DNA of 64,000 nt from Romanomermis culicivorax (lineage: Eukaryota; Nematoda; Enoplea; Mermithida; Mermithidae). The number at the start of each line of letters is the position of its first letter. The first letter of the stretch is position 1. The stretch spans positions 62,001 to 126,000 of the forward strand of contig CAWUHX010000111.1 of NCBI GenBank assembly GCA_963922205.1, given 5' to 3'. A program made the position numbers and the translations under genes. A model generated the notes under the pieces. That model worked only from the letters and a program-made list of their open reading frames with translations, was not told the DNA's origin and did not search any database. Shown one piece after another: positions 5,510-47,900 of the stretch.

Positions 5510-8500
5510 CTAAAATAAAATAAGGTTGTCATGGAAGCTTAATATGATACGATTTTTCCTTTTCATACACGCTCATCAGAAACCTGCGGAATTTGTATGC
5601 TTCATAAGTTTTTTTCAAGAGTTTGGTACAGTTGTTTGACCGAATAGAAATGTTATCGCCGAGGTACATAATGTTCGTGACTAAAAACCGAAATTCTGAA
5701 AGTTCTGAGACTCTCGAGTCTCCTTCTTTTTTAGCCGAATTTTGTCGTATTACGTGCTCGTATGCCCTCGGCTACCTAGCTGCGGTTCTTGGGAGATCCA
5801 ATCTAGTACGGCCCCTGACGCTAACCCGGTGTTAGACACTGTCCTACTGTAGATCTCGGAGACGTAAGAAACAAAGATATTTATTTTGGGAAACTGACAA
5901 GGGTGCAAATACAACCGTGAGCAAATGATGAACACAAATACAAAATGCCAAAGTATGAATACGAACACTGAACACCTCCCTAAGTCGCTGACCCTTCTTA
6001 AGTCCCTGTACGCAGAGTCCCAGGGACCTTCGGGTACCTTAATCCACGACCTAAGCTGAAAGCCTAAGAAAAAGATCAGTCTACCTTTTGAACTAACACT
6101 CACTCTTCTCCTCAACAAAGTTTGAACGTCGAAAGTCCTCTCAGGTCGCGGGAGTTTCTCCAAACGAGTCAGCGACGCGAAGTTGAAAATACAAAACAAT
6201 ACGAACAATAAAAGGCGTCCGCTATCCTTCCACAGTTGCCACCAGTCTTCTTCGAAGACGCACAGGAAAACGCGACCGGCTCGCAATAAGACGATTAATA
6301 ATAATAATGAAACAAAACTGCCACGCGTCTAACATCGACTTTGCAGATGCATGCAAAACATTCACGTCACCATTTATGTATTTTTGAGCCAAAAATGTAT
6401 ATGACACAAACCGTTTTACTGGTTTGTTTGCCCAAGAATAAATGAAACCACTTTAACAACAAAGGAGCTTTAGAGAATAAAATGAGGTAGTTAGAGGACC
6501 AAAGGTCAGAGGAATTGACCCTCTGACATCCCTCCCCCCCAAAGGCAAGACTTTTCCCGCCAGCGAAGGGAAAAGTCAGGAGGTCCCCCAAGGGCCCCAG
6601 ACCCTCGACGCCGACGATCGACGCCTCCAATCGTTCCAAAAAGGACGACGCTACGCGCCGTTGACGCAATTTGTATACAATAAAAAATAAAATGTCCGTT
6701 TCGAACGGTATCGTTCCACCATGGGGCCAATGGCGCCGGATGCTACCCCCGACGCTAAAAAAGTTTTCAAATAAGAATGCCCCGTGGGCCGGTTGTCCCC
6801 GAATAATAAAACAAAAATGTTCGAACGAATAGCGTTCGCGGCGCTCGGGCCGAATTTGATCGAATAAAAAATAAAATCGTATGACCGGCGGCGACCCCCG
6901 CGGTGCCCGGGTTACGTTGTGGGCCGCTCCCCACTGCCGTCGATGTGTATTTTATCGGCGGCTCCTCCTTCATCGATTTTGGCGTTCGTCTCCATCCTCT
7001 CCGGAGGGGGGGTGTTGACGGTGGAGAGCCCGCAAAACTTTCTCAATTTCCGCCGCCGTTGTTCCTCTGGCCCCTTGGCCGGACACTGGCCCCCCCAACG
7101 CCTTTGGTATTATCTGCCCCCAGGGAGAAAGGATGCCCGAAAACCAAATCCTCTGGCCCTTTGGCTGTCTAGATTTTGAATCAAAAATGTTTATGGTATT
7201 TGTTGTTAAAGTGATTTTGCCTTATTGAAGGGTAAACTTAAACCAGTAACACGGTTTGTGCCATAAAAAAAAAGAATTTTGAATTGAAAATATGTTTTGG
7301 AAAAAAGGTAAAGAGAAATGTGAAAAATGGTTACGCGAAAGCTGCCTACACACTGCACGATGCTAGTTGGCAACTGCATTGGAAGAAAAAGAAAGGCCAA
7401 AACTTACGCCAATACAAAATTTGGATTATCGTTTACAAGTTCACCGAAAAAATGAGGTACAAAATGTGCTTGTGCAGGTTCAAATAAAATAAAACACAGA
7501 TGAAGAGAAAGAATAAACGGAACAAACTGAGATTAGTACAAAAGGCAATTTTAAGGCAATTTTAAAGAGGCACAACCGGTTTCTGATTTTGTAATACTAA
7601 CGCCCGGAAAAAGATAAGTGATCTAAGCAATACCCGAAAAAATTACAACTTGAAAAAATTACGCTTATATTGACCTCACAAAGAGCGGGGTCATTATTAA
7701 CAATTAATTTACTTCTGTCGATGACCGCTGTGGTCCCGCCCCGGCTGACCGATACCTTGATCTCTCTTCAGCGGCGATATATACTCGGGGTTTCCTATCG
7801 GCGGTGGTCCTTGCGGCACTTGCATTCCCGTCGACGTACCCGGAATTTCCATCCTTTCTTCGCCTTGCCCGTTGCGTGTCGGCGGAATTACTGACGGCGG
7901 CGGCATTTGTATTCCGGGCGGAACCAAGAACTGGTGATAATATTGCTGTTGGCCCGGCTGGAATTGTAAAACCGGAAATTGCGAAACTTGAAATTGCTGC
8001 GGCGGAGGTATCATTGTATTGGGCAATAGTTGACCTGAAAAGAGAGGGCGAGTCATACAGTCAACTCCTACCATAGGTAATCCCGGATAATTCGGCGGCA
8101 TATACGGCAATTGTTGTTGCTGCGCCATCATCATTGCATTAGGGTCGGCCATTGACACTCCCTGCTGACTCGCTTCGTTGGCCCTAGGCCTATCCAGTGA
8201 GGCCGTACGACTGGAATAGGACACGTCCAATCGATCATCATGCTGATAATATCCGGGTGTTCTTTTTCGGCTTCGCGATTTTCGATTCTCTTTTCTCTCC
8301 TCCATTTCTCTTCTTTCTTTCTCTTTTCGCTCGAATTTCTCCTCGTATTCCTCAATTTCCTTACGCCAGCTTTCCTCCTCATTCTCTCTCCGCCTTTTTT
8401 CTCTTGACATCGACTTTTCATGCCGACTTTCGTCCCGATGCCGACTTTCATATCTCCTTTTTCGTTCTTTTTCTGGCGTAGCCGATTTTTCTTTTTTCTG

Positions 8501-11500
8501 TTTATCATCGTCTTTTCTCGTCCAATGTCTGGATACCTTTCCTGCCGCAGGCCTGCTGTAGGGGTGCTTGACTCGGTATCCAATTTTCTTTTTCAACTTT
8601 TTCTCGAGTTCCAATAGATCGCGAGCTTTCTTTCTATCAATAATTTCCCAAAAGCGTATTCGCGGATCCGTATTATCGATTTCTTTCTTCCAAACTTGAA
8701 TGTTCGTATAATTTGGTTCCGGGTCTTTTTTATCCTGAAGTACAGCTTTCGCAATTGTATACGCTAACCCTGATGCCTTGGATTGGCAAGCGGCGTATAG
8801 CGTATGAAAGTTACTAGCTGGTCCTTCTTGCCCCGCATTAAACTCGCGGCGCAGTTTCATGGCGATGTAAGCATGAGCCTGGTAATGGAAACCAGCGAAA
8901 TTCTGCGGAATCCTGCCCAACCGTGACAGTTTCATAAATAGGCAGGCGCAAGCCCACACTGCGGCTTCATAGGCTTTTTCCGGAGCCCGAGTTGTGGCCC
9001 ATTCTGTCAATTGCCTCTCGAATATATTCCACAATTTTTCTGGTAAATTGGCCTGCAATACGTGAAATTGCAGCTCATAATAGCGTATAGTTTCGATTTC
9101 TACTCCCGCTTCGTCGTAAATACGATTTATCAGATCCGTGGTCATAAGAGCCACTTCTTCATCCAAAGCAGGATTCATATGTGCGAGATACTTCTGAACG
9201 CACGGATTCGACAACGACACTCTGCCATATTGAAAATCGATGACGTACTTTCCTTCTTTCAAAGCTTTCTTCAAAAGCTGCCCACGCTTCCCGAGGCCTC
9301 GTCGATACTTTATTCTGTCATTCGGGTTTCCAGGCGGTTGATGAAATTTCCCGCTCTTCACTTGATCCAATTCGGCTTTGTTTTCATCTTTCGATATTCG
9401 ATTTTCTTTTTCTTGCCTTTTATTATGCATTACTCTCGCAAACTTTGTCGGATTAGTTATGTTTTCTACACTCTGCCCACCAGCTTTGGCATAAACCGGC
9501 GGTGCGGGCAGAGTGTTAGTTTCGGGAGATTCGTCCTCACTTCCAATTTCAGAAACGACTTCCACATATGGCTCCTCGCTCGTTTCCTCCTCCTCGGCGT
9601 TGATAGTTTCCAGTTGTTTCGCCAGCTCAATCGCGGCCTTCCCATACTTCTCTTTTTCTAACGTTTCGATTTTTTCTTGCATTTCTTTTATCTGCTCTGT
9701 CAATCTTTCCACATCAGGTTGTGTCTCGCATTCGGGTTCAACTATTTCCATCAATTTTTCTTCTCCCCCGACATTTTTGTTTTCGTCAATGGGCGCGTTG
9801 GCCGTGGGGGAATCCGGGATAATTACTTCCACGGGCTTTTCCTGGTCCATTTCGACACCTGAAACATTCAAATTATCGTTTTCAGAGGGTACGTTTTCTG
9901 TCTGCTCCTTCGAAGTTCCTTCTATAGGACCCTGGCTAGCCGGGACCACAACTTCTACTTGGGGAAACAGATCCGAATCGTCCCACTTAGTTACTGACTT
10001 AAAAGTTGCAGAAGTGCTTGGGACCCATAGGTCCTTAGCCTCGAATATGGACGCGGAAACATTCCAATAAATAAGATTTTTGCTCGCCGCGTGAATATGC
10101 AAAAAATGAAACACGTTATAAAAATTATGGTTCAAAAAATAAATAGAGTTATCACGTAAATCCGTTTCTATTTCTTCCTCTGGTTCTTTCAGGGAACGCG
10201 GTATCCATTTTATAGGTAGGACACAGAAAGTATTTTGGACCGACTTCTGCGTGCGTACCTTCGGATACCGATCCATCATTTGTTCGGCCTGATCGGTCAT
10301 TTTGTTATTTAGAAGGTCTTGGCCCATCCATTTCATAAATTCGATCCGCTCTTGCTCGTTTCTCCAAACAGTAGACCACATACCCGAAGTAAATCCAGGG
10401 ACCCAAGATCTCCATTCCTGCGCCGAGTGAGGCCACAAGAAATAGATAATAGGATTTATATTCTTCTCGTACAATTCTTTGACCACGGGGACGATTGATC
10501 GATTGATCTTTTTATGGTAGTAGTCCTTGAGCGACGATACCTGTTCTTGCAATTTATTCGTAAAATGGATCACTTTATTGGGCCACCTTCCTTGCTTCAT
10601 TTCCATTTCTCGTGGCTCTATTGGACGTCCGAACTGTCGCGCCGCTATTATATCTTCTAGGTCCCAATCGTTGGTTGGCGTTACTACCGATTCTTCAGTA
10701 TCCTTTCTTTTTCGTGATGCTTTCACTTTTCTTTCTATCCACGGGTACCAACCACGGGGTACTGGTTGCGGATCTTTTTCGCTATTCGAGAAATGTGGAG
10801 GGCAATAGAAATTTCCAGCCGTTTGGTCTTCCGACAATTTATAAGTTGATATGGCTTCCCCGCGCATCATAAAGTACAACGCATTGATATTGCCAGTCAT
10901 TTCTTCAACCCCATATGCGCCTTTCCACTGCGGGTCCGTATATTTGTCTTCAAACGTTTCTCGAAACCTTCGGGCTAAATCGGATACCAATTCTGGCTCC
11001 ATCGTATCGTGAGGATATAGTCTGAAGCAATTTTGCACATCACTAGCGAACCCGTATCGTAACAGTGCCAAAAAACATAGAAGAGACCCGCGCGCGTCGA
11101 GCGTCGCGTATCGTAAAACTTCTATGTTTAGTTTGTCCGCTTCCATTAGCTGCCGAAATTCTAAAGAGCTCAATTGGCCCCACGAAATCTTAAAAGCGTC
11201 GGCCCACAAAAACAGAAGTTCCGTCATAAAAGCCTTCAAGTTCAGGGCTTCCGGGCTAATTCCTACCATTCTAGTCTTCGCTTTATCTTTCATTTCGGCT
11301 AAGACGATTTCTAGATCGTAAACGCAGCACGACAAGATGTAGTCAATATTGTCGCGTCTTTTTCGGGCTAATTCCTTTTCTTGATCTAGATATCCGAACC
11401 TAGTCAAGACTAACGTGATATCTTCTCAGATATGAAAACCGACGATGATGTTTTCTTCGCGGAAAATTGTATTATATACCTTGTGAAAATGTTCTTGGTC

Positions 11501-14500
11501 CCAAAACTTTAGATCTATTATAAAGTTTTTTCCACACATGGTCGAAATTGTTAAGAGCCGTAAGGCGTCGCTGGGTCTCGAACCCGCCGTTTTGGGTTTC
11601 CTCCCACTTTCAGTATCTAGCGCGATGAGTACTCGTCCTCTAAATTTTGACTGATTTATCGCCTTGATAAACGCTTTTATGTTCTCGGGCGCAAGAAATA
11701 ATGGTTCCTCGATGGCCGCATGAGGCACACCGAACAACGACGAAAAATAATTAAAGATATCTGTTGAGCGTACCATTCTCCGAACATTGTAATCTTAAAA
11801 TTTTCATACAATTTTTTAACTACAATTTTCTGTGATAATTTCGAAACAAAACGACTCAAATGCACAAGAATAAATTTGGACATAGGTGAGTTGATCAGTC
11901 TCTCAAATACCCAAAATCCTCAGCATATAAATTGCCGCGCGGTCAATTTAGAGTCTTATTCCGAATACAAAATTTCTACCACATATTTTAACCTTTTCAC
12001 ACTTACTACTAAGTCGGAAATTTGTATTATCTTGGCGATCTTGCGGTTCCCCGAAACTACTGTCTACTTCGACGAAACTGGACGTGGCCATATCGCGTTC
12101 GAATTTGAACTTCAAAAATCCTCCAGTCGACGATAATAATAAATATTATAATACTTTGCAAATGAAATCTAAAAAGTAGCTCCATAACAGCTTCGATTTT
12201 ATGGGATCTATAACTCGGGAAGGGTTTTTTCGGGACTTATAAACATTTTCATTTCTTCACACCAAGCGCGTGAAAAAATATAATTTTTGCCCATTAAAAT
12301 AAATTTTCGGCGTCGTAATTTTTTACAAGTGCCTAAAACTGCCATAAAATTGCCAAAAATAAGTTAGAACGATAAAAATTCAAAGGGAAAAAACGAGGAG
12401 AAATGGGGAAAATTATGATACACGGAAGATTAAAAAGGGCCACATAAAACAAAATTTGAACACAACGCGCAAATAAAACGATAAAAATGAATTATGAACT
12501 ACAGTAAAAATCAGGTATCCGCGTAATAAAAGGCATTACGCGATTTACGGAGACTATTTGTACACGCGAATCTGGTTTCCCAGCGCGGCGTATTTTTATA
12601 ACATTTTTATCTAAATTTTGTGTTTCAATTACTTCGTAGGGGCCGTCATTTGTAGTGTCGGCCTTTCCTTTGATAATTCCCTTTTGATAGAGGACAAGTT
12701 CACCCGTTTGGAAGGTCTTCTCGCGAGCCTTCTTATCATACTGTAATTTTCTTTCGGCCGCCGATTTTTTATGGTTTTCATTTATAGTTTTATACGTGTT
12801 AAGGAGATGCTCCGTTAACATGTATCTATAGGTGTCGTAATTATTCTGAATAATTATGGGCCTCGCTATTTCGTTGTCTATCTGGAACCTTGCCTCGTGC
12901 CCGTATAGTAGGCTATGGGGGGAATTCTTTGTAGTTTTGTGAGGCGTAATCCGGTACGCAAATAAAATCTGTTCCAAATAATGGGGCCAATCGTCGGGGT
13001 CGGTAATTGCCACTCTTCGAATCTGCTCAATTAGCGTTCTATTAAATCTTTCCACCATACCATTACATTGTGGGTGGTATGGTGTCGTATTTATTTTCTT
13101 GATTTTGAGAAGGTCGCACATGTTGCGCATTAATTCGGACATGTATGCTGAGCCTTGGTCGCTCAGCAAGTGTTTTGGCGCGCCGTGAGTATAAATTACT
13201 TTCTCCATGAAGGCCTTTACTATAGTATCGGCTTTTTGATCGGGAATACACTTGGCCTCCACCCATTTCGTGAAATAATCCATGAATACGATAACGTAAG
13301 GCCTTTTTTCTCGTAAGGGCGAAATACTAACCACATCAGTGGCTACTATTTCCCAAGGATATGAAACGGGTATAGGGTTGAGTGGTTGAATTGGGTTCGC
13401 TATTGGGCGACATAATTGGCATACGACACAGGATTTTATCCACTTAATGATGTCGTCTTCCATATTTGACCACCAAAATTTATTCCCAATTGCGGCAATG
13501 ATTCTATCTATCCCTTGATGTCCCATCAAGGTATCGCCGTGGTACTGGTGTAGGACAAGATGCCTAAGCTTAGTAGGAATTACTAATTGATTTCTTCTGT
13601 GGATACTTTCCCGATACAATACCTCGTTTTCCAAGTGAAAACTATTGAAGTATTTCTTTGAGCTATTTTCACCAATATTCCGAAAAATTTCCACCAACTT
13701 TGGGTCTAATCGCTGTTGTTTCTTGATCAGTTCCAGAGAGAATAAGTCATACTCCTTTTTTGCTTCCTCTGGCGTTTGGTCTATTTCTTGTTGAGTTGGT
13801 GGTGGGGGATCAATAAATACTTCTTGTGTCTCTGGTTCAAGCATCTGTCTTGTCATAGCTCTTGTTACCGCCATGCATTCGGGTTCCGTATCCACTTTTT
13901 TGTCCTCGATTTTCTCGTTGCCTTCTGGTTTCTTGTTTCGGACCTTTTCTGTTTCCTCTGATCTTGATAAAAAATCTGCAAAGGCGTTCTCGCGTCCGGC
14001 TACGTATTCAAATGTGTAGTTGAACTGTCCAATATATATAGCCCATTTCAATAATCTTTGATTTTGTTGTTTCTCTGCGGAGAGCCAGGTAAGTGGTTTA
14101 TGATCTGTTCTAATTGTGACCCTAAACCCCATAACATAATGTCGATACTGTTTGAATCCATATACTACGGCTAAGCACTCTCTTTCCGTTGTCGAATATC
14201 TTGTCTCGGCGTCGTTTAAAACTCTACTTGAATATGCTATCGTCCAGCGATCGTTTTCCGTTTCCTGATATAGAATCGCACCTATCGCTGTCCCCGATGC
14301 ATCCGTTTGAATTACAAACTTCGCCGATCCATCGAATACTGGGTACCGCAGAAATGGTGCCGTCATTAGGGCATCCTTTACCCCTCTAAACGCCGTTAAT
14401 TGCTCTTCCGAAAGTTCAAACTTCTCTTTTCTATTCTTTTTTACAAGGGCTTTAAATAACGGCTGAGCGATAAAGGCTAAGTTATGTATAAATCGTTTGG

Positions 14501-17500
14501 ACCATTGCACTAATCCCAAAAATTTTTGCAACTGCTTGATCGACTTGGGTACTTCAAAGTTCTTTACCGCTTCTATCTTCTGGGGGTCAACTGACATTCC
14601 ATTTTTGTCCAATATGTGGCCTAAAAATTTTACACTGGCCGGCATAAAGGAGCATTTGTCAGGTTTCAATGTAAGGTATGCGTTTGTCAAACATCGAAAA
14701 ATGGTCTCTATATTTTGTAAATGCTCCTCGACTGTTTTTGAAAAGATTATCACGTCGTCAATATATACTAAACATATTTTCCACACGTATGGATAAAGAA
14801 TTCGCTCCATGAGACGCTGAAATTCTGCGGGGGCATTTTTTAAACCGAACGGCATCACCTTGAACTGGAACAGGCCGTCTTGACATATAAATGCTGTTTT
14901 TTCTTTCGATTCTGAGTGCATGGGTACCTGCCAATATCCGGACTTTAGATCCAAGGTCGAAAAATAGCGCGCACCTCCTAACGCATCTAAATAATCGTCG
15001 ATTCGTGGTATCGGGAATTTATCGTCCTTTGTCACCTGATTAATTCCTCTGTAGTCGACGACTGGTCTCCATGTACCATCTTTTTTGCCCACTAGAAACA
15101 ATGGTGCGGCCCAAGGGCTTCTAGAAGGCTCAATGACCCCTTTTTCCATCATATCCTTTACGTGTTCGCGGATAATATCCCTTTGCATTATAGGGGCTCT
15201 CCAGTAGTGTTTTTGGACTGGCAACGCGTCTCCTGTGTCGATTCTGTGTTGTGCCTCGTGAGTCATCGTTAGAGGGTCGTTCTTCATACTAAATGCGTGC
15301 CTATGTTTAAGTAGGACGTTCATAAGCTGTTGTTGCCCTTGTCGATCAATACTTGATTCTTTTACTAATTGCGTTATGATTTTGATGAATTCAGGTTCGC
15401 TCTGTTGTTGAATTTGCGGTTCGGCCTGGAGTTGATGTATCTTTTCATCGAATTCTGGCCCCACGAATTTCGTTCTGGATTTTGCTATTAGCTCGTTACT
15501 ACGCAATTTTATTCCCTTGTTGGTTTCGTTTATTAGTAGAATTTGAAAATTATTATCCCTGGCATCCACAATTGAGGCATCAACGTCGAACAAAGTATTT
15601 TTCCCCGTTTCTTCTATCACTATGGGGCCCTTTGTCCAATCTTTCTGTGGCCAAACCACAGCTTGTACAAAGGAAGTGGTATTCGGGGGTATATACGTCC
15701 CATTTTTTGTCCAAATAAAGGTTTCCTCGCTCATTTCGGTAATTCGCATGACTTGTTCTTGATCGTCATCGCTTTCTAACTCAGGCAAATCTTCTTCCTT
15801 GATTTCCTCTTTTATGGGTACGTGATCCAAAACCATCGGATTTGCTGGGATTGGCAACCGCGGCGGTATTTGCATATCGTCAAATAGTGTTTCACTAATT
15901 ATTTGTCTTTCTACATTCGCTAGGCGTATATGGCCGTTTCGAAAATCAATAGATGCCTGTATGCTAGGATGGGTTAGAAAATCTAGACCCAATATAATAC
16001 CTTCATTTAGGTTATCTAGCAATGCGAATCTAGCGAGAAAATTTCCAAAACCAGTTCCCACATATATAAATGTAGGACCATATGTTGTTACGCGTTTTCC
16101 AACCGCTGTTACTACTGAATTCAAAATCGGAAATTTCGTCTTTGATATATTCAACAATCTCGACGCTGTGTCCGTCCTCATAAAACTAGATTGTGCTCCC
16201 GTATCGATTAGAGCTTTAAATTCTTCTCCACGTATTTTGACGGGTATTAACAGTGGTTGACATTTGCGAAAATTTTCCAAAAATAAATGTTCGTTATCGT
16301 TGGCGAGTCTAGGCTTTGCTTCTGAGGTGGAGCTGATAACATTCGCCAAGCTTAACTCATAATTTTCTATAAGTACTCCATCTAGGGCTATAATTTCTGG
16401 TTTATCATGTTTTTTAGCCTCTTGTGAATTTATGACGTTTATGGAATTATTCGGAGGATTATTGATCGGTTGCGATGTTATTGGTGGTGCAATATTCGAT
16501 GGTGGCTGCGGGACATTATTTTGACGATAATAATACGCCGTGTTTGGATTTTGTTCGATATTATTATTGTATGGCATTCGTTGACCAAAATTTGCAAAAC
16601 CGGCTCGCCCACGATTCACGAAACCACCGCGATGGTCGAAATTTCGATTATAGAAGTTGTTACCACGATTCCACGGTCTTCCTTGATCTGTTGGCTGAAT
16701 CAGTTCCGGGTGAAGAATAAAACAATTTTCGGACGAGTGGCTATTGGACTTATGATATGAACAATACGGTCGGCGATATGGATTCCCCAAAACTCTATCA
16801 GGTAGATTATTATATTGAGCATTATTAGAATTATTATTGACTCCCCAACGATTAGGAGCTGGAGGGCCCTGATTCCTGATTGCGTCATTGACCATTTTCA
16901 TAATATCTTGTTGAGATACGGGATTTTGAAATACCGGGGGAGGTGGAAAAATTTGCTGAGGCCTTGTAACTTGTTGTTGTTGACCTATAGTACTATCCTG
17001 CTGACGAATCTGCACATTATTAAATCTTCGGTTTTCATAGACTCGATTCAGCCGATCGTCCTCGCCGTCCTCTTGTTCCTCGCTGAATTCCTTCCAGGCC
17101 GTCGTATCGGCTTTCAATTTATTTACGAATTCTGCCAAAGAGGCGATATTTTTGAATTCGTGGAGCCGACCTTCCATCCGAGTTTGGACGTACACTGGAG
17201 CCTTGTGAAAATATGTTTCAATAACAATTCGATTTCTTTCGTTTTCTGTTTTTTCGTAATTCAATAAATGTACATACGTCTTTATTCGTCGCAAAAAATC
17301 CTTCGTAGTTTCCCCTTTTCGTTTTTTCATATCATGTAATTCCCTTCTAAGTGCAGGAGTATCCATTTTAGGGGCGATCATTCTGATTACGCTTGCTTTT
17401 CCTTCTTCATAGCTGCCATTTTTGTCTACGTAAGTCGACGTTTCAAAATCACAACAACGCCAAAGCACTTCAATTCTCAGGTCCTCTGTGTCTTCGGGCT

Positions 17501-20500
17501 TGAATGTGCCCTCCAGACAGGCGAAAAAATTGAGTATTTCTGCAGCCTCCATTTTATCGGATATTTCTTTATTTTTCATTCGGCTTAAAATTATCTTCAT
17601 CCGTTTTTCCGGATCTTCACAATATCTTCCATACTCTTGCCGATTTCGAGGACTTCCTCCAGGTATGGGTTGCTCTCGTCCTTGATTCCATGACGTAGTC
17701 GGTATATCTTCTTCCCTCATTCGATATTGGGCACCTTGAGCCTTGGCCTGAGCCAAGTGGTCTTCGAACCAGTTCAATTTTCTTTCCAAACTCCTGTCTA
17801 AATGGTCTTTGACCGTTTCAGACGGAAGTATTTCCATATCTCCGGTATTCAATATTCTTTCGTCAGGTCTTTTATCCATTTTCTTCATCAGTTCCCGCAT
17901 TTGCTTTTCAACTTCTTCCATTATTTTTCTTGAATTTTGTTGTTCTTGTTCCCGGAATTTTTCTTCCCATAACTTGCGTTCCGCTCTTTCTCGCATGAGT
18001 TGATCCAGTATTTCTTGTTCTCGTAATGCCGCCTTGGTTCTTTCCACATTAACCGCATTAGTTGATTTGTCAACGGCTCTTTGCATGGATTCCAGGATGG
18101 CTAAAGTGGCCACATCCTGTATATTTCCACTCGTTATCCTTTCCATTTCATTTTTCGGTTTCGGTTCAATGTCGACCTTCGCGTCCGTTTTCGGTACTGT
18201 AGGCGTATATCTTGAGTTATAAAATGATACCGCATTCGTTTCGGGGGGTAAACTAATTTTCTCAAAAGATGATACTGAATCAGAGGACATCTGTATCCGG
18301 TGATCCGCATAATCATATGTTTCCGCATCAATAGTTTGATCTTTATCACTATCCTCGGGTAAATTCGCAAATTTCTTTGCTACTTGCTCGATAGTCGCCT
18401 CCATATTCGCCATTCGTTCCGTTTGATCCTCTTTATTTACTTCAGGTTGTAATAATGTTACCTTTGGTCGTCTGCAAGGTTGTTTCCGTACCGTTAATTT
18501 CAGTTTTAATGCTTTCTTCATCCTTTACCTTCGTAGCTGTACAAGTCACCAATGTCGTATTACGTGCTCGTATGCCCTCGGCTACCTAGCTGCGGTTCTT
18601 GGGAGATCCAATCTAGTACGGCCCCTGACGCTAACCCGGTGTTAGACACTGTCCTACTGTAGATCTCGGAGACGTAAGAAACAAAGATATTTATTTTGGG
18701 AAACTGACAAGGGTGCAAATACAACCGTGAGCAAATGATGAACACAAATACAAAATGCCAAAGTATGAATACGAACACTGAACACCTCCCTAAGTCGCTG
18801 ACCCTTCTTAAGTCCCTGTACGCAGAGTCCCAGGGACCTTCGGGTACCTTAATCCACGACCTAAGCTGAAAGCCTAAGAAAAAGATCAGTCTACCTTTTG
18901 AACTAACACTCACTCTTCTCCTCAACAAAGTTTGAACGTCGAAAGTCCTCTCAGGTCGCGGGAGTTTCTCCAAACGAGTCAGCGACGCGAAGTCGAAAAT
19001 ACAAAACAATACGAACAATAAAAGGCGTCCGCTATCCTTCCACAGTTGCCACCAGTCTTCTTCGAAGACGCACAGGAAAACGCGACCGGCTCGCAATAAG
19101 ACGATTAATAATAATAATGAAACAAAACTGCCACGCGTCTAACATCGACTTTGCAGATGCATGCAAAACATTCACGTCACCATTTATGTATTTTTGAGCC
19201 AAAAATGTATATGACACAAACCGTTTTACTGGTTTGTTTGCCCAAGAATAAATGAAACCACTTTAACAACAAAGGAGCTTTAGAGAATAAAATGAGGTAG
19301 TTAGAGGACCAAAGGTCAGAGGAATTGACCCTCTGACAATTTCACAATCACTTCACAAATTTTATGAGAAACGCTACTGTCAATTGGAAAGCTAATTTTC
19401 GTTTTTCTTGTCATCCACTTTTTTTCTGCTCATGAAACAACACATTACAAGTTGTCATTTTAAATAGCCGTAATCTCCTGTATAATTTTTGTACAGTTCG
19501 ACATGCTTGAGTCTTTAATCGTTGTAAGTGTGAAAATTTCCATAAAAGACATAAACAAAAGAATGGTGGAAGAAACAAAACATCAAGAAAAAGGAAATGC
19601 CAACAAAAAATGAAGACATTAAAAATAAGTGAAAATAGATGAAAAAGCATTAGAAAAAGAAAGAAAAAAATGACAAGAAAAAAGAAGCAACATAGAGAAA
19701 GCAGCAAGAAAGAAAGAAAAAAATGTGAAAAAAAGACAGAATCAGGAGAGGTCAAAAGCAAAAAATTAAGATGAAAAGTAATGAAGGAAATATCTCGAAG
19801 GATAAAATAATATAGGAAATAGAGTATGCCGAGTTGTATAAGAATTACACGGAAGACAATGCTTATTAAAAATGACAACTTGTAATTTGTTGTTTTATCA
19901 GCAAGAAAGAAAAAAGTAGATGAAAAGAAAAACGAAAATGATAGAAAGCAGAGACAAAAGATGAAAACGTAAAAACATAATAAACGAAAACATTAAAAAT
20001 ACACACAAAAAACGAAAGAAAAAAGAAATACACAATAAAAAATATGAGGTAAATAAGGAAAATATGAAGAAAGTTTTATTACATTCTCGATCGCTCGTTT
20101 GGAGTCGCTCAATTGGGAATTCGCTTATTTGGGAATTTGATGAGTTGGAAATTGCTCACATGAGAATACTCCGTGTGAGGCCATGGTTAAAGATATGGCG
20201 TGCGGTTGAGATGCATCACTGTGGACCTCAACGTCGGCAAGGCTCGGCAAAAATTTTCCCTAACTACAGAATACCCGTCCGGTCTATCAAAGCCAGAGCA
20301 CGCAAAAAGCTATCCTAAAGCAGGGGTTTTGACGTCCGACTCATGAACTTATCATAATCGACGATATCAAATATGTCAAGATAATTTCTGACAAATAATC
20401 CCTAGAAAATAGAAAATGACTTTTGCCTTCTGTCTGTCGATGAAGTTTTTAGCTTTAAGTAATTTACCAACGAAACAGCATATTTGTAGTTAAATATTTT

Positions 20501-38900: not shown

Positions 38901-41900
38901 TGTCCAAATCAAAAGTGGATAAGCATGATGATTTTCGATGATTTTGGCCTTTCCCATTCTCATGAAGAAATTTAGCGTTTTTTCAGTTCAAAATTTTTTT
39001 CCAAATGGACATTGATTATCAAACAGAACTTTCTTTTTGGTTTTCAGTGCTTCTATGATTTTTTATTAAATGGGCAGTTTATGAAATAGGCTTTGGGGAC
39101 GTCTTGATGAAAATTGGATATTTACTTGTCAAGATCAAGAAAGAATTATCAATGAATAAAGTTGAACGTTGATTTCATTTATCCCTAAATTCGAACGATC
39201 ATCAAATGTCAGAATTTTAATTGTGCAGTATAACTTTTGATATATTAAGTCATTATCCTTTTTTTGCACTGCGAAATACGTAGACAAGGCATGAGCAGTT
39301 AGTAATATCGAGTAAGATCTCAAAGCACAGAGGTATCAACAAACAACCCAACGTCTCAGGTTTAAACACTGTGTCAGGGGATATTTGACAAATGACATTC
39401 GAAACATACACAATAAATTGAAATTTGAAGTCCATGAAGATCAAACTTATTTGTAAAATCATGGATCCATCGATCGGATCTTTATATCAAGTTATAACAT
39501 ATACTGGTCATGTTAGTATAAAGCACGGTAACAACAATTTATTAATTTGCACAAATCAATGCAGTCTGTATTATTTTACATGAAAGTGGGACAACGTCGA
39601 AGCATTGATAATGTCGTTCAACTTACGTGATACTGTTCGGTCCTGGTGAGGGATTGTTCGCTGTCGATTTTTTAATTAAATTAGATACAAGTTCGGGCAA
39701 ACCCATAACTTGATCAAGTTGAGCTTTCGGACTGATCGACCATGGAACGGTGTCGGGCGGCAGGGAATTTTTATTGACTAAAATTAAACTTTTTCTATCT
39801 GGTGATAGACCCACTGCGATATTTGGAGCATTAACCGGTTGAACGAATGGACCATTGACAGTAAACAATCCCGTATTGCCACATGGAATTTCGGGGGTTT
39901 GTTGAAGAACCAGTGGCGTATTAGCTTCCAAGTTGCCCTGGGGAGCGATTAGTTGACCTTGTATACCTGCTGGCTCGAATATGAAGTTAGGAGGGGCGAC
40001 CATTTTCACGTGCCAAAAATGGCTGCTCGGGCTTTTAGGCATACCAATAATGATTGAACCAGACGTTTTCGGTGGGGCGATTCCAATGGTAATATCTTCC
40101 GGCTGAAGAGTAACGTGTATTACCACTGGACCGCTCCTTCTATAAGAAAAAGAAAATGTAGACTTGAGTGAACATTCATAAAGTAGTATTCACTCCAGAA
40201 TCATTGATACTATTTGATCCTCTGAGTTCAAGTCGATACAAAATACTTGTATTGCAAACTACAGCCACTTTGCTGTGTAACCCATACTTTTTTTAAATGT
40301 TCTTTGTGGTAAATATGATAATGAAGCAGTGTTTAACCTGACCAAATTTGTAGAGAACAGTTTATGGTGTGAATGGAATCGATAGTCATTTAATAATAAT
40401 CCTTTTTTCCTGTTGTCAGCAAAGTGTGAGCGCAAAGCAAGCAATGAACTTGATGTATTTATGGGGATGCTAGCATGAAATTCCGTTGTGTATCGGTATG
40501 CAGAATGTATCCATATCCCGAATGCATCGGTATACCGAATGTATCTTTATACCGAGTGTATCGTTAATCCGAGTAATGCATTAATTCTCGGTATCCCGAG
40601 CACATACAAATATATTTTTTATTCGATAACATTGACTGATTCTCGTTATCCAGAATACACATGTTTTGTATATTTTGCGTGGTGCTTACGTTTTGACTCT
40701 GGCTTTGGAGGCTTAGGCCGAGACTTAGGTTTAGGCTTGGGCTTAGGCTTAGGCTTAGGCTAAGGCTTAGGCTTAGGCTTAGGCTTAGGCTTAGGCTTAG
40801 GCTTAGGCTTAGGCTTAGGCTTAGGCTTAGGCTTAGGCTTAGGCTTAGGCTTAGGCTTAGGCTTAGGCTTAGGCTTAGGCTTAGGCTTAGGCTTAGGCTT
40901 AGGCTCAGGCTTAGGCTTAGGCTTAGGCTTAGGCTTAGGCTTAGGCTTAGGCTTAGGCTTAGAGTTAGGCTCAGGCTTAGGCTTAGGCTTAGGCTTAGGC
41001 TTAGGCTCAGGCTTAGGCTTAGGTTTAGGCTTAGACCTACGCTTAGGCTTAAGGATCATTTATACCTGCCTTTTTTGACGGAACGGAGGGGAATGGAATG
41101 CAATCGACACATCGTCACCGAACGAAAGAAAAATTTCCTTTCCATTCAGTTTGGTTGAAGGTTACCGTCGGCTATTTTCCAGAAAATTGCAGTTATCCTT
41201 TCCAATCGAAAGTAAATTTTCTGGCTGAACGTTTCAAGCTGTTGGCGATCCGTTCCGTCGAAAAAGACAAGTGTAAATGACCCTTTAGGCTTTGGCGTTA
41301 TTCAGGGTTTATGCTACAGAGAGGTTGTTTTTCTTCTGAACATTTTTCGCGATGCTAATACATTCAGGATACCGATATGTTCGGTATGCAGAGAAGTTTT
41401 GATTTTGTTGTAGAATGTTGAAATGAGACTTGGGGTTAGATTGAGAAATATAAATAAAGGATTTGATACCAAAAATAGACCTAATCAGTCACTAGCTAAT
41501 TCACCTAATCAGGCCGAAACCTTAGGTAGAATCAGATTGCAACAGTTCGGTCAGTCTCTAAATCAACAAAGATCTCCTGCTTTCGTCCCGAAGAACTGCA
41601 GAAGAAATGATAACACCCTGAGCTCAAGTAACTTCAAACCAGGGGCAAAATCAGAAGTCAGGCCGAGAACTGAGTTGTAAATGTAGACTTGCACGCTGGG
41701 TGGCTCTCCAGAAATCCGGGGTCTAACCTGCGTTCCCTCCGCTGCGAGTAATCCAAAGGCGATCGGCCGAGGGTCGTTGTATTTCTGGCGGAAATGCTCC
41801 ACCACAAATAAAATAACAAATTAATATAATATTATGCCCTACTGGGCCGCCGATACAAACAATAATCAATGAATGACCAAAAACATAGACGACCGGCATA

Positions 41901-44900
41901 TTTATGCACGGTGTCTATGCAAATCGGCGTCGACGCAAAACGCGTCGACTTCGGCTATTTCTTCACAACTTGGAGATAGACTATGTCCATCCCTGACATC
42001 CCTCGAGCCTCGAAACTGACCAACGGGAGGTTAAAAAGATTCATATTACGCCGCAATGACAATTTTGGAACCTTTTCAGGCCCTAATACAGTCGAAGCAG
42101 TTTTCTGAACCTTTTTGGTCATTCATGCCCCCTTGCGGAAAGCTTTCCGAATGACCACCCTCTTACGTCAAGTCTTTTACCAGGCATACCGGAATGTCCA
42201 CAAGGCCGTCCGGGTGCGCTACCTCCTGGTCTGGACGCCGACGGATCGACGACTCCGCGTCGGCTTGACTTTGTTGGCGTACCGCCGAAATCCAATTTGA
42301 CCTGCACCAGGGCCGAGGGTCTTCGGTTGCCGTCCATCCCGTGACCTTTCGTTTCGTGCTTTACGCTGGACGCCAGGGACAGAACATTTGTCTGTCTATC
42401 TCTTTCTGGTTGTGTGTTTCGCTGTGAAGCCTCCGCCTTTTTTCCAACGTTGCCCTCGCCAAAAAACATTTTCTAAAATATCTAAATAATTTACAAAATA
42501 TATACATTAGTACGCATATCACAAAAAAAAAATCAAAATCTCCCGGGCGTATCGATTTGAGCAAAAAAAAAAGAAAAATAAGGCGAGATTTAAATGAGAT
42601 TAAGTGAAAAAATAAATTTTTTGTACATGCCCGTTTGGCGATGCGAGGTACGAAAACGAATAAAAATTTAAAGCACGCAACAAATAAGAAAAATTTTTTT
42701 TTTGTATTTTGTATTTTATATTTTTTTTGTATTTTTGTGGTTTTGTATTTTTTTTTTTTGTATTTTGTGTTTTTTATGAAAAATAAATGCGAAAACAATA
42801 TTTTTTGGCCAAAAATTATGCGGCTAAGTTACTGTTGCGGCCCGCCGCCTCCTTGCGCCCCTCTCTGGGCTCCTCCACGACCTCCGTAAGGTCTCCATAC
42901 CCACTGGCCCTGCTGGCCTCCTCTGCCTTGCACCTGAGGCGCGGCACCTCTGCCACGCAGCGCTCCACGACCACCCCGGTTGGGGTTGTGGAACTGAAAC
43001 TGGCCTCGGCCTCGGTTACCAGTCTTTTGCACCTTTCCTTGCGTACTTGGAGCTATTTCCTGGCTTCCTTGGCCTTGACCCTGACCTTGAGGTCCGGGAA
43101 CCTTCAAAGTAGCGCCAGTTTTTCCGTCTTGAGCTTTACTGAACTTAACAGAGCTTTGCAAGTCTGAACTGGCACTTCTTTTGGCTCCCATCACTCCGAC
43201 CTGGTGATTGCTACTAAGCATCACAGATCGAAAGGCCGTTTTATATTCCAAGGGGGTATCGTGGTTATTATACACCCTCAACAGTCGGTTATTCGCCGCC
43301 ACCATCGCCCTGGCATAAATGTTTCCAATATGCATCGGGGATAGGGGGGCGCATTCCAACACGAGGAATAGCATCATAACCAAATACCTTACCGAGGAAA
43401 AAGCATCAGGTGCTCTCTCCGACTTGAGCCACCTGGGGAGAAAGTCATACATGACCCTCTCCCAGAGTTCTTCAGGTAAATTTGTCCGATCATAGAGAAA
43501 CGCTCCCTGGACTCTGAACTGTTGTTCATAGTCCCGGTAGATTTCCCTAACGGCGTCATTTACCATGAAGAAAACTCTTTCTGACTCAAATTGCTCGAAA
43601 GCAAAATATTTGGCCACTGCACTCGTAAAAAATGATATTGGGCCAGCTTCTCTGGCTTTTGGTTGGTAGACATCCCAGAAGTCCAAGAGACTGTCCTTGA
43701 ATTTTTCCGCAGTCACTTCCGGCGTTTCAGTTACCTGAGCAGCCTGTGCCTGCTTAATTTTACTGGGACCAGCCACTTGCACTTGACTAGCTGCCACTCC
43801 TGGTTTTTGGTCCTTGCTGGGTTTTGCCTGGCCTTTCGGCATCGGTTTCCCCATCGCAAGGCCTATTGCGCCTGGAGCTTGACTAGTTGTGGATGTGCTA
43901 TCCAGAGTTGCAGTGACCACTGAAGATGTGGCCAATGATGGTGTTCCAGTTGAGGTAGAAGTAATTTGAGAAGTGGGGGTAGTAGTGGAGGTAATCGTAG
44001 GAGTTGAGGTCGATATGACGGACGAAGACGCCGTCTTACTTTCTTCCTCTTTCGCTTCTACTTTTGCTCCCTTACTACCCTTCTTCCTCTTTTCCTTCTC
44101 CTTTACTCTCATTTTCTTTTTCCTTTCAGCCATAAACAATATTTTCTCGTCGTTCCAACCCTTTTCTCTCATACTTTGAACGACTTTGGCTGAGTATAAA
44201 CCTGGAACACCCCCATCAGCAGAAAACGCTATTACCTCCCTACTTTCCGTCATCTCCGAATCCGGCGTTTCCGCTTTCGTTTCGTCAATAACCAGCTTAT
44301 CGGAGGGCATATCGTCGTCTACCTTCATCGGCGATGGTGGCTCTAATACGACTACTTTTGTTTCCAATTCGGGCGCTGCGGTATCGTCTTTTTGGAGTCC
44401 GAATTGAATTGACATCTGGCGAAGTTTTTCGTTGTAAATCGCCGCGTTCTTTGCAAATTCTTCCTCCATCTGTTCACGTTGGAGCCGAATTCTTTGCTTC
44501 GCCTCCTCTTCAATCTTTAGAATGATTTCTAATCGACGTTGGTTGTCGAGGTCGGACTGCGTCTGAGCAGTTTGAGCTTGCATCAGTTCCGTTGCCGGAA
44601 CCGATTGCTCTTGCTGCTGCTCATCTTCCGACAGCTCAGTCACGTCCTCGTCCTGAAGTCCTTGGTCTGGCGATTCATCTTCAGCCGGCAGTCCAACTGC
44701 ATCGCTGAAGATTTCGCTTTCCGACGTTTGGACTTCCTGACCTGAAAGTATCGGAAATTCAACTACACCTAGTTCAGCTTGCTGTTTGTCCTCACCTTTC
44801 AGACTATCAGTCTTGATGGGACTAATCTTGCCAGCTAATTTGGTGACAGTACCTTCACCTGTCTTATAACTAAATGTGTGCTGAATTCCCGGTAAATCCG

Positions 44901-47900
44901 AGGCCAGAGGTCTATAGTCAAAGATCCTTTTAGGGAAGGCTATACTATACTCCCTATTTTCAGCCAATGACCCATAGATGTCTCCAACCTTGTCGATGTT
45001 GGTTTGCCAGGTTACCCCATATCTTAATGAAGGCCTCCTTTGTGCTAGCCCGATATGGTAGAACCTAACATAATAATACGGATTTGAGCTATAGCTCTTA
45101 CCGTCCGTAGTTATTGTGTCAGGGCTGCCAGGGATCGGCGCGCACACATCAGCATTTTTCCACAATCTTAATCGAATCGGCATAAATCCGAATCGATTCA
45201 TCCAAACATATATTCCGGCACCTTTGCGGGGTACCTCATACTCTATGTTTGGAAGAGTTTTTGCCAACATAAGATATTGGGACAGCCTTTCGTCTGACCG
45301 CCAAGCCATTTCTTTTATTTTGCCCTGCAGCTCTGGGCTGAACGATGTAATGAACCTGTAACTGAACATTTCGGCCATTACAAAGTCCAGTTCCTTTCTG
45401 CTGTGGGGCCAGATCACGTGAAAGGCTAGCGGGACTAAGGCACAAGCGGCTTGCAGTTCCGAGAACCACTTTTCCTCGAATGCCTTAGCATACTCCGCTA
45501 ACTGAGGCTTCCAGTGATCTTTGTCAAAATAGCCTACCCCAGGATCAATATCAATAGGCACATGAACCAGATGATTTTTTAGGGCATCTAGTAGTGCTTG
45601 CTTTTGACGATCTTGGGGTAGTTTGACAACTTTCCTGGCTGTGTCGATGAACCAAACTAAAGACGCTGGTTGAGTGAGTTCCTGATACTGCTTTCCCTGC
45701 GCCATCTCCTCTACTAACTGTAGGCGCAACCTATCCTTGGCCGACAAGCGCTGTTCAGGCCTAATCATTTCGTCGTCGTCGGGATCACTTGCCTCATCAT
45801 AGGAATTGGGCTTTAATTTTTTACCCTGGCGATAAGCACTTGGATAAATGCCTCGCCACAGCAAATTTTCTTTCCCCTTCCTAGGATTGCATATGTCCCG
45901 ATGGCAACGAAAATTAGGCCCTATTTCTTGCACTTGTGTGGCCCATCTTGCGTAAATTTCTTGGCGCATCATGTGGTAGGTGGCCTCAGGCTGCCAAACC
46001 ACAATATCAGGTGTACCCACAAAGTTACGTAATTTGTAGTCCGTAACTATATATGAGTAGAACTGATAAAATTTATATGAGAGTATTTCAATCTGGGCCG
46101 GATCGACTATATCGTGAGGAAAGTTGGCAACTCCCCCACATAGCTCAATCACATACCCATAGTGAAATGCTCCCATAAAAATTGCCAACGAAAAGTACGC
46201 ATCCATACCAGCGTACTGCAGCATCTCCTCAGGAACTCTTTCTTTGGCAACACTTTGTCTATTACGTAAGAGACTGAAATCAGTCTGGTGAGGACCGATG
46301 TCAGCCAAATACATTTCGGCAAAGAGGCCTTTCAACTTCAATGTCTCAGGGCAGATACCTGCTTTCCTGGATTTGGTAATCTCGCTTCCCATGATCTGCT
46401 TTGCCGTGACGCTTAGGTCGTAGTACCTTCCTAGATTTCCATCTTTGATACTACACCTAATCGCGTCAGACAAATCGCGACCATCGGTGCTTTTTCCGCA
46501 TCCACGGACATTGATAATTGAAACTATATCTTCTAAAACGGCGTAACCGACTAACAACGTCGCTGAGCGTAAAAAGTGTAACAATATGTTCTACTCTTGC
46601 TCTTGCAGCAACGTTAAGTCGATTACGAACGTTTTGCCATTTAGATGGGCGAACGAAACTAATCTGGCAAACTGGTTGCCTTTTTCGTTTTCGAACCCCC
46701 ACCTAAACAGCTTTCTAGCGTCCTCTCGGTTCACCTTTTCTACATCGAAGCCGATAATGCTCATGTCTCGGAAAGTGCTGCTTTCTAGGTGTTTTACCAC
46801 CCTTTCCACACTTCCCATGGGAACAATTATCGGCTCGATGGGGTTGGTCGGCCAGAACTCAAAAGTGGCAAAAAACCACCTTTCCAACTCCGCTATCCGC
46901 ATTGCCCGACGGATATTGTGGTCTAAAAAATTCAGGAGAGATTTAAATTTTAGCCAGACATACTCTACTAACTCCTTATGTGCATTTTCGTGACCCTTTT
47001 TACACTCTTTGGGTAATTTTACCCACTATTACTCCTTTAACTCTTTGGGGAAAAACTCTAGCACCTTTGTGCAGAACACCGCTTTAACTTTTGAACTTTT
47101 GAAATTTTGGAGCGGGAACTTGATTTTTAGCCTTTCTGGCCATTGGGTGTCCCTTTATAGAAACCAAAATTGATAGGCAAAAGTATGTGAAATTAGGTGT
47201 TTTTCACTCTAAACCCAACACACTCTTGCTACTCGATGAGCTCAATCGATCACAATCTTGATCTCCACGACTAACTCCTGCTAATCCCCTTCTTCGCCGC
47301 TTTGCGGAAACCAGAGGGAGCGGGAATGACAAAAACCTCCCCTAATCGGATCACCTAATTCGACCGAAGTCTTTTTCGGATCACCTAGGTTCGGCCTTTG
47401 CCACCCCCTTCTACCTAATTTTTTGTGTTAAATTCTCAACTCCCAGTTGGTAGCTCGTCCGAGAAAGGGCACAGAAACAGTCTTACAAAACACCCCTGAC
47501 GAGCGTAACCTCCGCTCATTTTCTTACCTAACTATTTACAAATATAAAATGGTTGCTTACCGTCGACCAAAAAATAGCGATTGTTCTGCCGCGGGTGCGG
47601 CTCCCCAAACTGGACCTCATCGTCCGTCGCGTTGTACATTGGAGTACACTCATTCGGCGTGCCCATTCGAAATTTTTGGGCCCGATTCTTTGCACCAAAA
47701 TATTTTTAAAAGTTTTTAAAACCGGATTTGCAGCTGTGAAAAGTAGACAGATGTATAAAACATTTACAGTCTATTCCCTTGCGGCTGCAAATTACCTTAT
47801 GGGAGGGTTCTTCCCTTCACAATGTTTTCGAAAAAGATTTGAAAAAAATAAGAGCAGACGGGGGACAAGACTTTTGAAAGTTTTGAATGATTTGGAGTTG

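What the first reader, a model, noticed from the sequence alone, without database searches (positions are those of the whole stretch)
7709..11776. Gypsy retrotransposon with a DEDDy 3'-5' exonuclease in the env position (element 1)
Seen: DxE (ALDTES), an Asp after VGFxxxED, and YxxxD (YATLDARG) in the order and spacing of the RNase D/WRN/MUT-7 exonuclease family, within a ~1355-codon frame after gag-pol. Known: the family includes MUT-7 (transposon silencing in C. elegans) and EXD1 (piRNA pathway). Inference: the element may have captured a host exonuclease, perhaps to counter small-RNA silencing or to process its own nucleic acid. I know of no standard Ty3/gypsy element with this arrangement, but I could not search.
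Basis: partly seen in the sequence, partly recalled or inferred. Interest (0 to 1): 0.88.

Follow-up and report, generated by a model that had tools for sequence, protein, structure and literature searches.

The report
Nematode retrotransposon carrying exonuclease gene
Two young jumping genes, very probably in a worm genome, each carry an extra gene that looks like an RNA- or DNA-trimming enzyme where retroviruses carry their envelope gene; a similar pairing is already known in rotifers, and both copies of the gene here are interrupted by a stop signal.

Summary
Element 1 (5743-19338, minus strand) is a complete Ty3/gypsy-type insertion; between pol and the 3' LTR lies a long frame with the DEDDy residues (DxE, D, YxxxD). 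Element 2 (41416-55347) has a homologous frame (22-29% identity by segment) with the same residues. A DEDDy profile hits the Exo I piece of element 1 (0 of 2,000 shuffles as high); Pfam's only match to the Exo III piece of element 2 is PF01612 (E = 0.012, below cut-off). The other two pieces fall in register but score weakly (29 and 534 of 2,000). Corrections: an in-frame TGA (11426-11428) separates Exo I from the Exo II Asp, and element 2 has a TAG 19-20 codons earlier, so both copies are broken; and bdelloid rotifer LTR elements already carry DEDDy ORF3s (PMC5408684). Different here: the host (TTAGGC arrays indicate a nematode), a frame of about 1,350 codons with further conserved stretches, an acceptor-like AG shared by both, and retention of the gene in elements whose pol is 51% identical. 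Fold, catalysis, other genomic copies and any counter-silencing role remain untested.

The parts
5743..6528 (-). Element 1, 3' LTR (786 bp, TG..CA ends)
   Evidence: 786 bp, 1 mismatch to the other LTR; ends, and 4-bp repeat ATTT at 5739-5742 and 19339-19342
18553..19338 (-). Element 1, 5' LTR
12492..18524 (-). Element 1 gag-pol in one frame (protease, RT, RNase H, integrase)
   Evidence: PF00078 2.6e-39, PF17917 6.3e-34, PF17921 1.5e-18, PF00665 4.7e-14, PF13975 2.9e-07
7709..11794 (-). Element 1 second frame (ORF2) between pol and the 3' LTR, interrupted by one TGA
11426..11428 (-). In-frame TGA inside the exonuclease domain, two codons before the Exo II Asp
11609..11617 (-). Exo I D-T-E, element 1
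   Evidence: in register with a DEDDy profile
11420..11422 (-). Exo II Asp, element 1
   Evidence: aligned with the Asp of VGYAVLEDI of element 2
11096..11110 (-). Exo III Y-A-T-L-D, element 1
11794..11795 (-). AG just before the first residues conserved between the two ORF2s (acceptor-like; inferred)
   Evidence: matching AG in element 2 at 46923-46924
8546..9253 (-). C-terminal region of ORF2 conserved in element 2 (NLPE.LW motif), no Pfam match
   Evidence: (E = 2e-06)
41416..41998 (-). Element 2, 3' LTR
   Evidence: 4-bp repeat AGAA at 41412-41415 and 55348-55351
54747..55347 (-). Element 2, 5' LTR (18 gap columns and 2 mismatches against the 3' LTR)
48097..52767 (-). Element 2 pol frame (nucleocapsid knuckle to integrase)
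52768..54819 (-). Element 2 gag frame, ending in an in-frame TGA before the pol frame
   Evidence: no Pfam match
42829..46590 (-). Element 2 ORF2 downstream of its in-frame stop (Exo II, Exo III and C-terminal regions)
   Evidence: PF01612 E = 0.012 on the first 180 residues
46591..47025 (-). Element 2 ORF2 upstream of its in-frame TAG (46591-46593), with Exo I D-V-E at 46738-46746
46201..46215 (-). Exo III Y-A-G-M-D, element 2

Best explanation
A lineage of Ty3/gypsy-type LTR retrotransposons, very probably in a nematode, carries a long accessory gene after pol. Shown: its N-terminal part has the residues and order of a DEDDy 3'-5' exonuclease of the RNase D/WRN/EXD2/MUT-7 group, followed by about 1,000 residues with further stretches conserved between the two elements and a basic tail. 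Inferred: it is expressed from a spliced subgenomic mRNA, and the intact protein is an RNA-binding nuclease that trims or degrades RNA 3' ends to help the element, most simply by processing its own transcripts or protecting them from host RNA control in the germ line. Shown: both copies in this window carry a stop inside the exonuclease domain. Inferred: these are recent nonsense mutations, and the copies would depend on intact relatives for this function.
For: Complete insertions: LTRs, 4-bp target repeats, gag-pol domains. ORF2 homology between the elements: BLASTP 6e-17 after the stop and 4e-10 before it. Catalytic residues shared. DEDDy profile on the Exo I piece of element 1, 12.0 bits, 0 of 2,000 shuffles; all four pieces place their catalytic motif in the right profile columns. 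PF01612 E = 0.012 for the Exo III piece of element 2. The only PDB sequence matched by the two-row profile after the stop is EXD2, in register at Exo III, E = 1.3 among 177,635; this lead and PF01612 rest on the same stretch. Acceptor-like AG at the same place in both. Tails: 3 RGG and 9 RG in the last 123 residues (element 2), 8 RS/SR in the last 300 (element 1), net charge +15 and +16. Expected nonsense mutations since insertion 0.33 and 0.94 against 1 and 2 seen.
Against: Both copies are interrupted in the exonuclease domain. Profile scores are weak: PF01612 is below its curated cut-off; with the 23-sequence DEDDy profile 29, 68 and 534 of 2,000 shuffles equal the other three pieces; hhalign of the pieces against an RNase D-like profile is not significant (P 0.15 in register, 0.2 out of register); the two-row profile of the pieces before the stop matched no exonuclease in the PDB; the reverse search gave scores near zero. 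No structure could be predicted. No relative of ORF2 was found in the 5.8-billion protein collection. Function, substrate and splicing are inferred. Two stops 19-20 codons apart in two elements are not specifically explained by random decay.
Confidence: 0.4

Rival explanations
1. The domain is a DEDDy relative that now serves only as an RNA-binding or structural module (as PMC5408684 says of Maelstrom and EXD1), or ORF2 has a CERV-like role in nuclear export of genomic RNA.
For: ORF2 sits where Cer1 of C. elegans has its spliced CERV gene, a nuclear protein needed for genomic RNA export (PMC10309623, passages). PMC5408684 calls Maelstrom and EXD1 inactive DEDD derivatives that still bind RNA (passage). 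Most of ORF2 is not the nuclease.
Against: All five catalytic residues are kept in both elements although the aligned segments are only 22-29% identical. CERV is described with H, M and G domains; the word exonuclease does not occur in that paper's main text.
Confidence: 0.25
2. The nuclease counters host small-RNA silencing by degrading or mis-trimming piRNAs or siRNAs.
For: The family includes MUT-7 and the piRNA trimmer Nibbler (membership recalled; Nibbler's trimming of piRNAs in a passage of PMC13269885). A nematode host is likely.
Against: Nothing in the sequence names the substrate. PMC5408684 found no unambiguous link between ORF3 activity and copy number in rotifers and thought a self-silencing role unlikely to last.
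Confidence: 0.15
3. The motif match is chance or only a distant RNase H-like fold; ORF2 is a lineage-specific structural or envelope-like protein.
For: No family match above a curated cut-off and no significant hhalign match. The best 19-residue hydropathy mean in element 2 is 1.79, high enough for a membrane helix by the usual rule of thumb (recalled, 1.6).
Against: 0 of 2,000 shuffles for Exo I of element 1 and the PF01612 and EXD2 leads at Exo III of element 2. In element 1 the best hydropathy mean after the stop is 1.29, so no membrane segment is shared.
Confidence: 0.1
4. The two in-frame stops are programmed (readthrough, or removal by splicing) rather than nonsense mutations.
For: Young insertions (LTR differences: 1 of 786; 2 plus 18 gap columns) both carry a stop within 19-20 codons of each other in the same domain.
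Against: Different codons (TGA, TAG) at different aligned places; by eye no shared intron signal in the two stretches (no splice-site program was run); expected chance numbers of 0.33 and 0.94 make one or two stops unremarkable.
Confidence: 0.08

Closest known systems
Bdelloid rotifer LTR retrotransposons Vesta and Juno with DEDDy ORF3 (PMC5408684; abstract and passages seen)
   Same: LTR element, RNase D-like DEDDy exonuclease ORF downstream of pol in the env position, no fusion glycoprotein
   Different: Host here is probably a nematode; the pattern reported there is DEED, here DEDD; here the exonuclease is the N-terminal part of a frame of about 1,350 codons. The lengths and sequences of the bdelloid ORFs were not seen, so size and descent could not be compared.
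Athena Terminons of bdelloid rotifers (PMC5408684 and PMC6431247, passages)
   Same: Retroelements carrying DEDDy exonucleases; described at telomeres, and element 2 here lies about 365 bp from a telomere-type repeat array
   Different: Penelope-like rather than LTR gag-pol; up to 40 kb
Cer1 of C. elegans with CERV (PMC10309623, passages)
   Same: Nematode LTR element with a non-envelope gene after pol, expressed from a spliced mRNA there; an acceptor-like site here
   Different: CERV is 517 aa with H, M and G domains and no exonuclease reported
Cellular DEDDy exonucleases (PF01612: RNase D, WRN, EXD2, MUT-7, EXD1)
   Same: DxE, D and YxxxD in order; PF01612 lead at Exo III of element 2 and a DEDDy profile hit at Exo I of element 1
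   Different: About 38 extra residues between Exo II and Exo III relative to RNase D; below Pfam's cut-off

Membership tests
DEDDy 3'-5' exonuclease (PF01612) | Exo I DxE, Exo II D and Exo III YxxxD in order | tested here: met
   Both elements; the frame is interrupted by a stop in each
DEDDy 3'-5' exonuclease (PF01612) | Score above Pfam's curated cut-off | tested here: not met
   Best 15.8 bits against 23.6; searched as pieces, which lowers the score
DEDDy 3'-5' exonuclease (PF01612) | Profile similarity beyond chance | tested here: met
   Met by one piece: element 1 Exo I, 12.0 bits, 0 of 2,000 shuffles. For the other three 29, 68 and 534 of 2,000 shuffles scored as high, though in register
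DEDDy 3'-5' exonuclease (PF01612) | RNase H-like fold with clustered acids | not tested
DEDDy 3'-5' exonuclease (PF01612) | 3'-5' exonuclease activity | not testable with these tools
   needs an assay
Ty3/gypsy LTR retrotransposon | LTRs, short target repeat, protease-RT-RNase H-integrase order | tested here: met
   no BEL/Pao peptidase A17 (PF05380) among the hits; no tree was built
LTR element with DEDDy ORF3, as in bdelloids | DEDDy exonuclease ORF downstream of pol | tested here: met
   to the strength of the exonuclease call
LTR element with DEDDy ORF3, as in bdelloids | Common descent of the ORF with the bdelloid ORFs | not tested
   Bdelloid sequences were not at hand
Envelope-bearing retrovirus-like element | Fusion glycoprotein with membrane anchor | tested here: inconclusive
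   No envelope family in Pfam at E <= 10 for ORF2 of either element; hydropathy 1.79 at best in element 2, 1.29 in element 1, not shared; no dedicated predictor was run

The most novel reading that the evidence does not exclude
A nematode retrotransposon lineage has kept, across elements whose pol is 51% identical, a catalytically competent MUT-7/EXD-like exonuclease as a counter-silencing factor that degrades or mis-trims host small RNAs; copies with a broken exonuclease survive by borrowing the protein from intact relatives.
Probability: 0.1. Interest if true: 0.85.

Novelty: new variant of a known kind. Interest (0 to 1): 0.5.

Why it matters
If right, DEDDy exonucleases in the env position are not a rotifer oddity but recur in another animal phylum, one with model species in which element function and small-RNA pathways can be studied directly. 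That would make testable what such nucleases do for retroelements, and whether retroelements exchange such ORFs or capture host genes, both left open in the rotifer work (PMC5408684).

Tried and rejected
Envelope protein: no family match, no membrane segment shared by both elements. Relatives in public collections: none for ORF2 in the protein collection (6,363 and 6,389 candidates, none at E <= 0.001 and E <= 1) or in viral contigs; none for a pol stretch in viral contigs. The 120 pol relatives listed of 3,871 hold no ORF2-like stretch (blastp E <= 0.01) and no DEDDy-profile match (E <= 1). Single-sequence PDB searches with the long pieces after the stops: only unrelated hits at E 1.2 or worse. 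Two-row profile of the pieces before the stop against the PDB: one unrelated hit, E = 0.52. hhalign against an RNase D-like profile: not significant. The first DEDDy profile, of 5 sequences, did worse than the 23-sequence one: 84 and 696 of 2,000 shuffles for the element 1 pieces, no match for the Exo I piece of element 2, 10 of 2,000 for its Exo III piece. Reverse search: the profile of the pieces before the stop put exonuclease-bearing sequences at 15 of the top 20 (83 of the 282 searched are such, many of them near-copies of one another) but with scores near zero; the profile after the stop put 8 of 20. Of the RNase D loci only L002-L004 went into that set. DNA comparison of the two elements: no blastn match at E <= 1e-3. 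Paper searches listed no nematode element with an exonuclease.
Full report
What is there. Two LTR retrotransposons lie on the minus strand. Element 1 spans 5743-19338 (13,596 bp) with 786-bp LTRs that differ at one base, TG..CA ends and a 4-bp repeat ATTT on either side. Element 2 spans 41416-55347 (13,932 bp); its LTRs differ by 2 mismatches and 18 gap columns over a 601-column alignment, and its flanking repeat is AGAA. [quoted passage not shown] element 2 has the same domains, with an in-frame TGA between its gag and pol frames. Their RT-to-integrase regions are 50.6% identical; the best-scoring other sequence among the 120 listed relatives is 44.6% identical. The two elements share no DNA match (blastn E <= 1e-3). 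They are distinct members of one lineage, as far as a comparison without a tree can say.

The second frame. After pol each element has a long frame (ORF2). In element 1 it runs from 11794 to 7709 and in element 2 from 47025 to 42829, each with one in-frame stop: TGA at 11426-11428 and TAG at 46591-46593. The pieces after the stops match each other (26% identity, E = 6e-17), as do the pieces before them (26% over 103 columns, E = 4e-10). Identity over MAFFT alignments is 26%, 22% for the N pieces and 29% for the C-terminal region. Because homology lies on both sides of each stop, and tblastn aligns element 2 straight across the stop of element 1, each stop falls inside one ancestral protein.

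Is it a DEDDy exonuclease? Shared by both are D-x-E (columns D58 and E60), the Exo II Asp (VGYAVLEDI opposite VGFHI*EDI), and YAxxD (Y126 and D130 of element 2). I kept the pieces apart. With the whole 1,253-residue piece the E-value is 0.16. The two-row profile of the pieces after the stop matches one of 177,635 PDB sequences at E <= 10: EXD2, in register, E = 1.3. The two-row profile of the pieces before the stop matched no exonuclease, nor did single-sequence searches. A profile built from 23 diverse DEDDy domains scores 12.0 bits on the Exo I piece of element 1; 0 of 2,000 shuffles and 0 of 299 window ORF chunks reach that (the nearest chunk, 11.9, is this same frame; the next is 4.0). The other three pieces align with their catalytic residues in the right columns, but 29, 68 and 534 of 2,000 shuffles score as high. 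hhalign against five RNase D-like sequences was not significant. My probability that the domain is DEDDy-type is about 0.88. It rests on one strong piece (Exo I, element 1), two overlapping weak leads at Exo III, and conservation of the residues.

Host. Tandem TTAGGC arrays lie at 27366-27611 (29 exact units in a row, on the other strand) and 40709-41051 (23 exact units in a row). TTAGGC is recalled as the nematode telomere repeat. A weak major sperm protein match (E = 0.034) agrees. The species is unknown, and its genome could not be searched.

Expression and state. Just upstream of the first residues shared by the two ORF2s (D-x-N-x-R-R, before the first ATG of each) both elements have an AG at the same codon place (11794-11795 and 46923-46924), after T-rich stretches. 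With Cer1's spliced CERV in the same position (PMC10309623, passages), a spliced mRNA is the likeliest way to make the protein; this is inferred, and no donor was identified. From LTR divergence the expected numbers of nonsense mutations per copy are 0.33 and 0.94; seen are 1 and 2, counting the gag-pol TGA of element 2. Decay after insertion is therefore sufficient, though the closeness of the two ORF2 stops remains odd. The tails are basic: RG/RGG-rich in element 2, with some RS/SR in element 1, as in many RNA-binding proteins (recalled). Hydropathy peaks at 1.79 in element 2 and 1.29 in element 1, so a membrane anchor is not shared, though no dedicated predictor was run.

Compared with what is known. 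Rodriguez, Kenefick and Arkhipova (2017, PMC5408684; abstract and passages seen) described DEDDy ORF3s in bdelloid LTR elements, acquired at least twice, and in Athena Terminons. They proposed RNA 3'-end processing and mentioned a MUT-7-like role. Three further papers mention such exonucleases as accessory domains or ORFs of retroelements (PMC6338049, PMC6431247, PMC5718144; passages). The listings of searches (titles and starts of abstracts; one search listed 20 of 24) showed no nematode case; most subscription papers are outside that library. This finding is therefore a new variant of a known kind: another host phylum, a long frame with other conserved stretches, and a lineage that has kept the gene. 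It is not categorically new.

How it may work. Most likely an accessory RNA 3'-5' exonuclease acting on the element's own or host RNA in the germ line (0.4 for this mechanism as a whole). Counter-silencing is possible (0.15), as is a non-catalytic RNA-binding or export role (0.25).

Noticed in passing
window 27366-27611 and 40709-41051: Interstitial tandem arrays of the telomere-type hexamer TTAGGC in opposite orientations (32 of 41 and 45 of 57 six-base steps exact); element 2 begins about 365 bp from the second. They suggest a nematode host.
   Followed up: partly
window 52768-52770: In-frame TGA between gag and pol of element 2, where element 1 has an uninterrupted gag-pol frame: nonsense mutation or a readthrough signal.
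   Followed up: partly
window 11426-11428 and 46591-46593: The only stops inside the two ORF2 frames fall within 19-20 codons of each other in the same domain, in two separately inserted elements.
   Followed up: partly
window 3540-5270 (+): Host gene with an FMN-dependent dehydrogenase match (PF01070, 6.8e-21); a later exon by reading follows a TTTCAG acceptor-like site.
   Followed up: partly
window 58705-59262 (-): Frame with a weak major sperm protein match (E = 0.034).
   Followed up: no
window 5750-6286 and 18560-19096 (-): A 178-aa open frame inside both LTRs of element 1; the copy at 5753-6286 has no Pfam match at E <= 1.
   Followed up: partly
window 34112-34260 and 34912-35095: Two minisatellites with units of 15-16 bp that look like reverse complements of each other, about 650 bp apart.
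   Followed up: no
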